Positions 16,232 through 19,560 are shown, counted from the first letter of the stretch. The stretch: DNA of 64,000 nt from Cyanobacteriota bacterium (GCA_022402445.1 JAKRSF010000008.1:62001-126000), one strand, 5' to 3'. The notes: generated by a model from the sequence alone, not told the origin. A program made the numbers and translations.

Positions 16232-16597
16232 TTAGGCGATCGCGAATTCCGTCAAGGCGCGTTTTTCGGGGGAATAGAACGCGAGGACAATTTCATCGGG
16301 CGTCAGACCAGCCTCCAAAAGATCCGTGGCGAATCCTTTGGGGGTTTGGTCGATTTCGATCCAAATTTTTTGGTGATGGATTCGTACATACAGAACCGTG
16401 CGATCAATGCGCCGTTTGCCTTGCCACCCGAGTTCGATCCAGAGGTAGTGATCGCGCGATCGGTCAAAAATAACCAAATGTTCGAGGGTGACGGGTACCT
16501 GTTCGCTGCCCTGGGCTTCGTTAGCCCATTGGCAATAGTCCGTCATCAGATTTTCGATCAGTTGCCGATAGTGGTCGATGCGTTCGGTTCGATCCAT
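16232..16597 (-). CDS. xisI: XisI-family protein (no XisH partner here)
   Basis: 121 residues. XisI, with XisH, is needed for excision of the fdxN element in heterocystous Anabaena, and homologous pairs are scattered as accessory genes in many cyanobacteria. Family landmarks are DHYRQLIENL, FDRSRDHYLWIELGW, VRIHHQKIWIEID and FYSPEKRALTEFAIA. The ATG at 16597 gives the family's usual length; a purine-rich AAGAGAAG lies about 10 bases before it. XisH usually precedes XisI, but here the upstream space contains a repeat and then an unrelated TPR gene. It may be an orphan remnant or act with a XisH elsewhere. Confidence 0.88.
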   Translation of the reverse strand: MDRTERIDHYRQLIENLMTDYCQWANEAQGSEQVPVTLEHLVIFDRSRDHYLWIELGWQGKRRIDRTVLYVRIHHQKIWIEIDQTPKGFATDLLEAGLTPDEIVLAFYSPEKRALTEFAIA

Positions 16598-16640
16598 TGC
16601 ATGAATCTTCTCTTGTGAAAGATTGATCGATAGCAAAATC

Positions 16641-16704
16641 GGTAGGGTGCCGTTCGCAAAGGTTTCATTTCACCGCACCGTTGCTAATGCGAACGCACCG
16701 CCCC
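16641..16704. repeat. Inverted repeat of the GGTGCGTTCG family
   Basis: GGTAGGGTGCCGTTCGCA at the left and TGCGAACGCACC at the right form a long imperfect hairpin in the gap between xisI and the TPR gene. Two more copies lie at 49881-50090. It resembles the small palindromic, MITE-like repeats that end in GCACCCTAC in many cyanobacteria. Confidence 0.7.
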
Positions 16705-16711
16705 GTATGAG

Positions 16712-17971
16712 TTAACCCTGGATTAGCGCCTGGAAACGGGGATCTTGGCGGATGGGGTCAAAGGCGCGATCAACTTTGGCGTCCTCTCGCCAGTCGGGAT
16801 CAAGTTCAATAGCCTGCTGCAAGCTTTCTAGGGCACGATTCATATTTTCTTGAAAGCTATAACATCGAGCTTGGCAGTACCAGGCCAAGGGGTAGCGAGG
16901 TTTGAGTTGGAGGACTTGATAGAATGTCATGATCGCTTTTTCATAACATCCGATACTCCCCAGGGCAACGCCAAGGTTATGCAGAGTTTTATATTGATCG
17001 GGCTGAAATTCGAGGACACGCTCATAGCTTATGATCGCTTGATCAGGATGTCCAAGTTTCAAAAGCACGTCACCTCGTTGTATCCAAGCTGCCACGTGAA
17101 ATGTAGATTCAAGCTGAAGTACTTGCTCATAGCTTTTAAGTGCTTCTTCGTGGCGTTTAAGTTGCTCAAGCGCATAGCCTTTCCAAAAAGCAGCCAAATC
17201 ATTGCTGAAATTAAAGCTTAGAGATTGAGTAAGATTTATGATTGATGATCCGTATTTTCCCTTAAATATCTTGAGTTTTCCTATCTCTAGATACAATCGA
17301 CTTAATTGCTTAGAATCACTCGCTACGCGAATCAGATCTTGCAGTTCTAGGAGCTTACCTATACAGTCTGCTTCTGTTACATTGCTATAACCCTTGTCTT
17401 CTAAGAAACTGGTCAGCAGATCTAAGTTACGATCCACCTCCGATGGCCCTAGCGGAAATCGATAGATGCCCAAACGCCAATCAAAAAAATCCCCCGCCCG
17501 CTCACTGAGATATTGAATCGTCGTGGGGCGACAGCAAAACACAAATGCACAGGGAAAGCGATCGCGCAGTGTCTCCCGCGCCCAGTTCAGATGTTGCAGA
17601 ATTGGCGGCACTCCACCCCAATCCACCTCATAAATCTGCACATCGCTCCAGCCCGCCTGCCGCTTCGTATCCTCATAGTCCAGCAGCGCCTCCTCCAGAT
17701 CCCGCACAAACAGCACATCAAATTCTGCCGATTCTGCCAGATCCTTCACCCGATCCACCAGCGTCGTCGCCTTGCGATCTAGGGTCAATTGGGCAAACCG
17801 CTTATCAGGAATATCCCGCCGCAACCGCTCAAATAGCTCAGTTTCCTTGGCGCGATCGCACACCACAAAATGCAGCTCAAACCCCGTCTGTCGTTGGAGC
17901 GATCGACGGAGATTTGCATAGATTTCCTCCGCAGTTTCCGGCGGTAAATCCTCCTCATCCTCCCAATTCAT
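16712..17971 (-). CDS. TPR protein with N-terminal STAND-like domain lacking a P-loop
   Basis: 419 residues. Residues 1-200 contain LHFVVCDRAKETELFERL, FDVLFVRDLEEALLD, LNWARETLRDRFPCAFVFCC and the FFDWRLGIYRF segment. This order matches the head of STAND-type NTPases in bacterial conflict and signalling proteins, but no Walker A sequence is present. Residues about 220-405 are TPR repeats (ALEQLKRHEEALKSYEQVLQ and similar). The C-terminal half is visibly more A+T-rich than the flanks and lacks HIP1 sites. It lies 65 bases downstream of an AAA-type ATPase gene on the same strand, so the two probably work as a pair in which the neighbour supplies the ATP hydrolysis. The function is unknown; conflict or stress sensing is inference. 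Confidence 0.75.
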   Translation of the reverse strand: MNWEDEEDLPPETAEEIYANLRRSLQRQTGFELHFVVCDRAKETELFERLRRDIPDKRFAQLTLDRKATTLVDRVKDLAESAEFDVLFVRDLEEALLDYEDTKRQAGWSDVQIYEVDWGGVPPILQHLNWARETLRDRFPCAFVFCCRPTTIQYLSERAGDFFDWRLGIYRFPLGPSEVDRNLDLLTSFLEDKGYSNVTEADCIGKLLELQDLIRVASDSKQLSRLYLEIGKLKIFKGKYGSSIINLTQSLSFNFSNDLAAFWKGYALEQLKRHEEALKSYEQVLQLESTFHVAAWIQRGDVLLKLGHPDQAIISYERVLEFQPDQYKTLHNLGVALGSIGCYEKAIMTFYQVLQLKPRYPLAWYCQARCYSFQENMNRALESLQQAIELDPDWREDAKVDRAFDPIRQDPRFQALIQG

Positions 17972-18036
17972 TACCCGTTCCTCATTCAGCGATCAACACA
18001 AAAAACACGCCCAAATCGATTATTTAGACAAAGAGC

Positions 18037-19434
18037 TTAAGCCCCTTGCTCCGGCGAGTTGGATCCTTGAAAAGCCGCCCACCGCTGCTTAAATTCCTTA
18101 GAACTGCGGATTAGGGGATGCACCGCTGCCCAGGTGATTTTGTCCTCCGCCTCCTCATCCCATTCGCGATATTCCAAAACGCAGAGTCGAAAGAGCAAAT
18201 TACGACAGCGATCTTCACATTCATTGCGGCTGTCCCGCGTTTGCTCCACCGCCATCAACGCCTCCCAATCCTCAAACCGAATTGCATCCAGATAGGTTTC
18301 CCGCGCCTCCGCGATCGCCCGCTGCACCGTTTTCATGTCAATCGGCAACACATCCACCCGCTTGAGCGCCTCCTGCACCAAACGCATCAGCTCCCGCATG
18401 TGGCCGCCACTCGCCAAACAGAGCCGCTCCACTGCCCTTTCTTCCTCAAAAATATCCGGCACCAGGGATTTTTTGGGATCCGCCTTCGCCACCCGACGGG
18501 CCAACACATCCCGCAGTTTTCCGTAGCCATCCGCCCGTAGTTGATGGGCCTGATCCGCGATCGCCACCATCGGCAACCGCTCCACCCCGTCATACTCATC
18601 CCGCAGCCGGGACGCACTGGCCGAAAATACAAACGACACCGGAGCCGTATAAATCGTATGGCAATTGAGCGCCTTCAACGAATCGGCCCGATCCAGAAAA
18701 ATTTCATCATGGTTCGTGCGCCCATCGGCCCGCTCAATCGGCAGAATGCGATCCAGGTTATCCGCAATAACGACTAAGTCCTGCTTTCCGTCCGGTAGCC
18801 TTTTGCGCGCGTCTTCAATTAATTGATTCAGAACCAATTCCAAACTGTCTATCCGATCACGCAACAGCTTTCGCACCTGATCGCGCTTTTGAGGTTCCAG
18901 TCGCACTGCCGTCGTCAGCTTCAAAAACTGACTCAGTTGCAATTCTACATTTGTCCTCAAGTCCTCAATTTTAATGTCCGCCAAAAGCAGAGACTTTAAA
19001 TCTTCAAGGGAGCGCATTAACCATTGTCCTAAAGGCTTGGAATCGAACCCCTTCAAGTCCTTAAAGCCATCCAAAAGATTGCGGGCACAGGCCAATAAAA
19101 TATCGCTATATTCCGTATCCCGTAGGTTCAGATCCCCCGCATCATCCGTCGCAGCGGCGAAATAGACCACAAAGAAGCCTTGCTCCTCTAGCCACAACTT
19201 CAGCTTCTTCAGCTCCGTAGACTTGCCGCCACCGCGATGGCCCGAATAGATCTGACAGGTTTTCTTCTGGGCCTGGGAAATTGTGCGACCCAGATCCATC
19301 GTGATGTCATCGTCTCCCCGCACCGCCGTACAGTCCACATAGGCCGGATCCCCAGGCTCCAGGGGCTGCGATGGATCAAACTCGTGCTTGATCTGGGTGA
19401 TCTGAAAATCTTGATTCGCCACGCCGACGGCCAC
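18037..19434 (-). CDS. AAA-type P-loop ATPase paired with the TPR protein
   Basis: About 465 residues. Walker A is GHRGGGKST near residues 65-73 and Walker B is LVVIADNLDRI near 215-225. SFVFSASASRL could provide a sensor residue, and a helical C-terminal half contains GGHMRELMRLVQEAL, which resembles the lid of AAA/STAND ATPases. I take GTG at 19434, spaced 8 bases after AGG; TTG at 19437 is equally in frame. There is no membrane helix. The family carries a SGHRGxGKSTEL signature that I have seen in cyanobacterial accessory ATPases without known function. With the TPR gene it forms a candidate two-gene module. Confidence 0.8.
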   Translation of the reverse strand: MAVGVANQDFQITQIKHEFDPSQPLEPGDPAYVDCTAVRGDDDITMDLGRTISQAQKKTCQIYSGHRGGGKSTELKKLKLWLEEQGFFVVYFAAATDDAGDLNLRDTEYSDILLACARNLLDGFKDLKGFDSKPLGQWLMRSLEDLKSLLLADIKIEDLRTNVELQLSQFLKLTTAVRLEPQKRDQVRKLLRDRIDSLELVLNQLIEDARKRLPDGKQDLVVIADNLDRILPIERADGRTNHDEIFLDRADSLKALNCHTIYTAPVSFVFSASASRLRDEYDGVERLPMVAIADQAHQLRADGYGKLRDVLARRVAKADPKKSLVPDIFEEERAVERLCLASGGHMRELMRLVQEALKRVDVLPIDMKTVQRAIAEARETYLDAIRFEDWEALMAVEQTRDSRNECEDRCRNLLFRLCVLEYREWDEEAEDKITWAAVHPLIRSSKEFKQRWAAFQGSNSPEQGA

Positions 19435-19560
19435 CAACGCTACCTGAGTCGAGTGTAGCCCACGCGATCGCGGCGGCCCCCGCAGACAAATCGCCCATCA
19501 AGCGCCCCCCAGATGACACAATAGGAAGCGACCGTAAACCCTTTATCTACCTGTGGAGCC

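What the first reader, a model, noticed from the sequence alone, without database searches (positions are those of the whole stretch)
16232..19434. Accessory island: AAA ATPase, P-loop-less STAND-like TPR protein and orphan XisI
The AAA gene (Walker A GHRGGGKST) is followed by a TPR protein whose N-terminal STAND-like head has lost the P-loop. The natural reading is a split STAND system with ATPase in one chain and the sensor TPR in the other. A XisI gene without XisH and a palindromic repeat are downstream. From about 16243 to 17557 there is no HIP1 octamer, and the TPR half is A+T-richer than the flanks, both suggesting transfer. Such split modules are often conflict systems.
Basis: partly seen in the sequence, partly recalled or inferred. 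Interest (0 to 1): 0.6.

Follow-up and report, generated by a model that had tools for sequence, protein, structure and literature searches.

The report
Split NLR-like ATPase and TPR sensor
Two neighbouring cyanobacterial genes, an ATPase and a repeat protein whose head domain has no ATP-binding motif, always travel together across cyanobacteria, and the repeats change fastest on their binding face, so the pair is probably an immune-receptor-like sensor split over two proteins whose trigger and effect are unknown.

Summary
In detail: a P-loop ATPase (18037-19437, -), a TPR protein whose N-terminal head lacks a P-loop (16712-17971, -) and an orphan XisI (16232-16636, -). The pair is real. In 80 relatives from cyanobacterial genomes the ATPase is directly followed by a head-TPR gene in 74; in three more the head lies further downstream, and the last three contigs end. 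Heads lack GxxxxGK[ST] in 59/59; ATPases have it in 48/48. A sister ATPase family is coupled to the same head fused to an intact nSTAND1 NTPase, usually with WD40 repeats. A relative occupies the effector slot of a published VMAP ternary conflict system. Where sister ATPases are 95-99.6% identical, heads are 90% but TPR arrays only 57%, with very different lengths. Between neighbouring near-identical repeats, six ligand-face positions have pN/pS 1.95 (1.33-2.72) against 0.27 elsewhere, as in fungal NLR repeats. The pair is patchy, swapped between close relatives at one locus, and absent beside hom in four relatives. XisI and the HIP1 gap are incidental. Best reading: a two-chain, NLR-like diversifying sensor. 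Invader, effector and anti-phage activity are unproven; the head's STAND ancestry is inferred.

The parts
18037..19437 (-). AAA/KAP-like P-loop ATPase (466 aa; TTG start as called, true start uncertain)
   Evidence: family alignment A4 of 48 sequences.
19216..19242 (-). Walker A GHRGGGKST of the ATPase
   Evidence: GxxxxGK[ST] in 48/48 family members.
18748..18774 (-). Walker B region VVIADNLDR of the ATPase
   Evidence: D226 invariant, D229 and R230 nearly invariant.
18109..18276 (-). Predicted C-terminal winged-helix-like domain of the ATPase (ends in the conserved W..HPLI motif)
   Evidence: Helix-helix-hairpin in the model; W436, H440, P441 invariant.
16712..17971 (-). Head-TPR protein (419 aa), partner of the ATPase, 65 nt downstream of it
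   Evidence: pairing.
17450..17932 (-). P-loop-less alpha/beta head (residues 14-174), five alternating strands
   Evidence: AlphaFold model mean pLDDT 85.7 for the protein; no P-loop in 59/59 heads; F35, N129, R132, R158, D161, F162, D164, W165 invariant.
16793..17311 (-). TPR array (about residues 221-393) with conserved end-of-array motif; lowest G+C of the window

Best explanation
The two genes encode the halves of one NLR/STAND-like sensor switch. Chain 1 is an active KAP/Orc-Cdc6-like ATPase with a C-terminal winged helix. Chain 2 is a docking head without a P-loop that carries a TPR array. I propose that the head binds the ATPase, that the TPR concave face binds a protein ligand, most likely from an invader or a non-self competitor, and that binding triggers ATP-driven assembly of a mixed oligomer that launches a response. 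Shown here: obligate gene coupling, loss of the P-loop in the head, full ATPase motifs in the partner, fast turnover and diversifying selection of the TPR ligand face, the same head wired to an nSTAND1 NTPase (often with WD40) in a sister system, and an ATPase relative inside a VMAP conflict system. Inferred: physical interaction, oligomerisation, ligand, effector output (none is encoded in the pair) and the anti-invader role.
For: Pairing 74/80, with three more separated, at least one by an apparent transposase gene, and three contig ends. Overlap ATGA (-4) is the commonest spacing. Pairing is also kept in sister family B, in a third divergent pair of the same genome and on an Acidobacteriota plasmid. 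Heads A and B are homologous (hhalign 98.5%, E 4e-15), as are ATPases A and B (100%). B-type partner proteins carry nSTAND1, and three of the four scanned also WD40. VMAP-C/VMAP-M1, MoxR and a vWA-like protein with the ATPase at its C terminus form one locus, L194. ATPase models resemble Cdc6/Orc, TnsC, the archaeal ATPase SSO1545, RdrA, CED-4 and Dark. TPR arrays 57% identical where ATPases are 95-99.6% and heads 90%, median array length difference about 150 aa, in loci whose flanks are often 93-98% identical. pN/pS 1.95 at positions 2, 5, 9, 12, 13, 34 against 0.27 elsewhere; held-out choice of positions gives 1.97. Allele swap at one locus. On conjugative plasmid pREC1 between tyrosine recombinases.
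Against: No effector domain, no known defence-family match above weak ATPase or TPR resemblance, and no experiment. Head-STAND homology not detected by profiles. The copy in the window has a short, divergent TPR array without near-identical repeats, so the selection result comes from relatives. The few headless TPR arrays analysed show the same ligand-face trend, so diversification may not be peculiar to this pair. ATPase model only pLDDT 75.
Confidence: 0.6

Rival explanations
1. A split transcriptional or signalling regulator of the MalT/SWACOS type: the TPR array senses an endogenous protein or metabolite, and the ATPase with its winged helix binds DNA, with no role in conflict.
For: Winged-helix-like C terminus. 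MalT, Orc and TnsC (DNA-binding or transcriptional ATPases) are among the structural matches. No effector domain in the pair. Transcriptional STAND regulators are well known (own knowledge).
Against: Patchy distribution, allele swap, repeat turnover and positive selection on the binding face, and sister forms in nSTAND1-WD40 proteins and in a VMAP system.
Confidence: 0.17
2. Kin or allorecognition rather than anti-phage defence: the diversified TPR arrays recognise proteins of non-self neighbours in filaments and mats, as fungal het NLRs do.
For: Same evolutionary signature as in Podospora NLRs: repeat-number polymorphism and positive selection on the concave face (PMC4986451). Most named carriers are filamentous genera. 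No relatives in the phage or viral-contig collections.
Against: No contact-dependent delivery gene nearby; no conserved third gene at all in the neighbourhoods except other TPR proteins. Host filamentousness was not tested against genome size.
Confidence: 0.15
3. A housekeeping ATP-dependent scaffold or chaperone with a TPR adaptor, with the array variability being only neutral repeat slippage.
For: TPR adaptors with AAA ATPases are common (own knowledge); the pair has no toxin domain.
Against: pN/pS significantly above 1 at six ligand-face positions; not universal; hom locus of four relatives lacks it.
Confidence: 0.08

Closest known systems
nSTAND2 two-gene counter-invader operon (Kaur et al. 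2021, PMC8195603)
   Same: Mobile two-gene unit with one active NTPase and one partner whose NTP-binding motifs have eroded; predicted hetero-oligomer.
   Different: There the eroded protein carries GT4 or HEPN effector modules; here it carries a hypervariable TPR sensor and no effector. Sequence relation not tested.
iSTAND / VMAP MoxR-vWA ternary systems (Kaur et al. 2020, PMC7159879)
   Same: Inactive STAND-like component; an ATPase of the present family sits at the C terminus (effector slot) of the vWA-like protein beside MoxR and VMAP in L194.
   Different: No MoxR, vWA or VMAP gene in the window pair or as a conserved neighbour.
Fungal NLRs with high internal repeat conservation (Dyrka et al. 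2014, PMC4986451)
   Same: TPR arrays with repeat-number changes and positive selection at concave positions.
   Different: Fungal NLRs are single chains with an active NACHT or NB-ARC; here the NTPase is a separate protein and its partner's head has no P-loop.
KAP family P-loop NTPases (Pfam PF07693)
   Same: Relatives of the ATPase pass the curated cut-off (34.4, 26.4 and 23.2 bits against 20).
   Different: The window protein itself scores 18.3, just below the cut-off.

Membership tests
STAND/NLR proteins | Intact P-loop NTPase with Walker A and B | tested here: met
   In the ATPase chain: GxxxxGK[ST] in 48/48 and D226 invariant.
STAND/NLR proteins | NTPase and superstructure-forming sensor in one polypeptide | tested here: not met
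   Two genes in every family A locus examined; in family B the head is fused to a second, intact nSTAND1 NTPase.
STAND/NLR proteins | STAND-type helical lid and winged helix after the NTPase core | tested here: inconclusive
   Lid-like helices and a winged-helix-like end in a model of pLDDT 75; matches to Cdc6, CED-4 and Dark at Z 8-10.5 with rmsd mostly above 8.
STAND/NLR proteins | Effector domain | tested here: not met
   Pfam, NCBIfam and PADLOC find none in either chain of the window pair.
Inactive STAND (iSTAND-like) head | STAND fold with lost NTP-binding motifs | tested here: inconclusive
   No P-loop in 59/59 heads, five alternating strands. No profile similarity to nSTAND1 or to the ATPase. 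Head fold not searched alone.
KAP_NTPase (PF07693) | Score above Pfam's gathering cut-off | tested here: not met
   18.3 against 20 for the window protein; relatives pass.
nSTAND2 two-gene operon | Eroded partner carries GT4 or HEPN module | tested here: not met
   Partner carries only TPRs.
Diversifying NLR-type sensor repeats | Repeat-number variation and positive selection on the ligand face | tested here: met
   Family-wide, not in the window copy itself.
XisHI locus | XisH next to XisI | tested here: not met
   No XisH near 16232-16636; 9 XisI and 6 to 7 XisH hits in the genome.

The most novel reading that the evidence does not exclude
A previously undescribed class of prokaryotic immune receptor that is split in two: a generic Orc/KAP-like ATPase motor is licensed by a pseudo-ATPase head that carries a hypervariable, positively selected TPR array. 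Repertoire diversity is made by repeat shuffling on the head chain only, and the same motor-head interface is reused in nSTAND1-WD40 receptors.
Probability: 0.4. Interest if true: 0.78.

Novelty: new variant of a known kind. Interest (0 to 1): 0.6.

Why it matters
If true, NLR-like receptors need not be one chain. A constant ATPase can serve an exchangeable sensor chain, as reader and receptor are separated in some eukaryotic immune pathways. The system would give a bacterial model with built-in repertoire diversification, without diversity-generating retroelements, in cyanobacteria that can be cultured and transformed. The sharply defined six-position ligand face makes the ligand directly testable.

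Tried and rejected
HIP1 desert as transfer evidence: rejected, about two such gaps expected. XisI as a component: rejected. Among wider loci it was found only beside the G001 pair, with another distant hit in L165, and XisI is multicopy. Palindrome as a module border: rejected, dispersed repeat. Conserved third gene or effector next to the pair: none found by all-against-all clustering of neighbours, only other TPR proteins. Head as a degenerate copy of the ATPase or of nSTAND1: no profile similarity. Fold search with the head-TPR model returned only TPR structures, so the head fold is untested, not shown to be new. Solved relatives by sequence: none convincing. Phage and viral-contig relatives: none. 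High internal repeat conservation as a mark of head-linked arrays: 9/55 against 1/3 headless, too few to conclude.

Full report
What is there. The minus strand holds, in order of transcription, an ATPase (18037-19437, 466 aa), a TPR protein (16712-17971, 419 aa, 65 nt further on) and a XisI gene (16232-16636). The ATPase has Walker A GHRGGGKST and only weak Pfam resemblance to KAP_NTPase (18.3 bits, cut-off 20) and other AAA models. The TPR protein has TPRs from about residue 221 and no Pfam match in its head. The ~55-nt palindromic stretch between the TPR gene and XisI is one copy of a dispersed repeat of about 64 bp, with about 17 copies at E < 0.01 in this genome. The TPR half is the lowest-G+C part of the 64-kb window (41.8% against 61.9% on average), but the HIP1-free stretch is unremarkable.

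The pair is a unit. A search of 59 relatives found 12 ATPase genes next to head-TPR genes in several families. In a scan of 84,980 species' genomes the best 80 ATPase relatives were all cyanobacterial. In 74 of them a head-TPR gene starts at most 640 nt after the ATPase. In three the head is further downstream (L174 with an apparent transposase gene in between, L134, L186). In three the contig ends within 300 nt. The commonest spacing is a 4-nt overlap, which points to translational coupling (inference). All 59 representative heads lack GxxxxGK[ST]; all 48 representative ATPases have it. Head residues F35, N129, R132, R158, D161, F162, D164 and W165 are invariant. The N/R pair and the A-P/G-D motif recur, with exceptions, in all head types aligned, as expected for a shared interface (inference).

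Relatives of the pair. A second ATPase family (about 320-345 bits against over 450 for the first) is followed by proteins of 1000-1920 aa. These begin with the same head (hhalign 98.5%, E 4e-15) and continue into an nSTAND1 NTPase with an intact P-loop, with WD40 repeats in three of the four that were scanned. The ATPases of the two families match over their whole length. The window's own genome has three pairs. The first is the one described here. The second is a B-type whose head gene is a 160-aa stub (L101). The third is a divergent pair with another type of TPR (L102, L103). An ATPase-head-TPR pair also lies on an Acidisarcina plasmid (Acidobacteriota). A B pair lies on a conjugative Acaryochloris plasmid between two tyrosine recombinases. 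On a Nostoc plasmid the ATPase domain is fused to the C terminus of a vWA-like protein next to MoxR and a protein with VMAP-C and VMAP-M1. That is the published VMAP ternary conflict system (PMC7159879) with this ATPase in the position where effectors sit.

Not universal, not simply vertical. By my count of the table, family A occurs in about 91 of 390 sampled genomes of the class, and A or B in 184 (counts are lower bounds because few candidates per genome were scored). The homoserine dehydrogenase locus where the window's pair sits has no pair in four relatives of the same family. In two genomes of one genus, flanks that are 89-90% identical at DNA level over 5 kb carry ATPases that are only about 42% alike, and the identity ends at the end of the upstream MFS gene. 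The simplest reading is exchange of the cassette.

The TPR array behaves like a receptor. For pairs of loci with ATPases 95-99.6% identical, heads are 90% identical, the linker 77% and the TPR arrays 57%. Array lengths differ by a median of about 150 residues, the same as between distant members. Flanking DNA in such pairs is often 93-98% identical. Three headless TPR genes in the same loci stayed 80-94% identical. Between neighbouring repeats at least 80% identical (83 pairs, 31 arrays) pN/pS is 1.95 (bootstrap 1.33-2.72) at positions 2, 5, 9, 12, 13, 34 and 0.27 (0.22-0.34) at the other 28. Choosing the six positions in one half of the arrays and testing in the other half gives 1.97. These six positions lie on the TPR concave ligand face (own knowledge of TPR numbering). 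Fungal NLR TPR repeats show the same combination of repeat-number change and positive selection on the concave face (PMC4986451). Limits: headless arrays were too few for a fair control and show the same trend, and the window's own array is short and not internally conserved.

Structure. The head-TPR model (mean pLDDT 85.7) has alternating strands and helices in the head (strands 32-37, 59-63, 86-90, 142-147, 168-171), compatible with a Rossmann-like P-loop-type core without the P-loop, then helical repeats. The fold search was filled by TPR structures, so the head was not tested. The ATPase model (pLDDT 75) resembles Cdc6/Orc, TnsC, the archaeal ATPases SSO1545 and PABY2304, RdrA of RADAR, CED-4 and Dark, with domain rotations. 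No profile similarity was found between head and ATPase or head and nSTAND1. 'Pseudo-STAND head' is therefore a hypothesis.

Mechanism proposed. A constant ATPase is engaged by the head; ligand binding to the TPR face releases or orders an ATP-driven mixed oligomer, as in NLRs, with the head perhaps supplying conserved arginines in trans. The output is unknown: the pair encodes no effector and has no conserved third gene. The output may come from the ATPase's winged helix acting on DNA, from nSTAND1 or VMAP systems sharing the interface, or from an unlinked effector. What is shown is coupling, loss of the P-loop, diversification and context; the rest is inference.

Relation to known systems. 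The closest published parallel is the nSTAND2 two-gene operon, with one active and one eroded STAND protein, but there the eroded partner bears GT4 or HEPN effectors (PMC8195603). I found no description of this ATPase-head-TPR pair in the papers searched, which does not exclude one elsewhere. I rate it a new variant of a known kind.

Noticed in passing
L194:1958-7131 (Nostoc sp. [quoted passage not shown]
   Followed up: partly
G000:C13:253056-255500 (L101, L206): Second pair of the same genome: B-type ATPase intact, but its partner is reduced to a 160-aa head stub with no nSTAND1 or WD40; looks degenerate.
   Followed up: partly
G000:C9:212000-215000 (L102, L103, L205): Third, divergent ATPase-head pair with kinesin-light-chain-type TPRs; a 100-N assembly gap lies inside the TPR array.
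   Followed up: partly
window 16650-16704: One copy of a dispersed imperfect palindromic repeat of about 64 bp, with about 17 copies at E < 0.01 in the genome.
   Followed up: partly
L081 and L075 (G004 and G002): Same site after an EmrA/MFS operon carries two very different ATPase-TPR alleles in two genomes of one genus.
   Followed up: yes
L067, L069, L073, L177: Loci with two head-TPR genes, one on each side of the ATPase; suggests that one ATPase can serve two sensors.
   Followed up: no
G000:C11:78238, C11:486128 and C7:624838: Orphan XisI genes; the genome has 9 XisI hits and 6 to 7 XisH hits, and one XisH (C7:176509-176909) appears split in two frames.
   Followed up: no
L193 (Acaryochloris marina MBIC10699 plasmid pREC1): B-type pair between two tyrosine recombinases, with HicAB and a NACHT gene next door: a possible defence island on a conjugative plasmid.
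   Followed up: no
L168:113-1639: Headless protein made almost only of near-identical TPRs, about 3 kb upstream of an ATPase-head pair; could be a donor of repeats by gene conversion.
   Followed up: no
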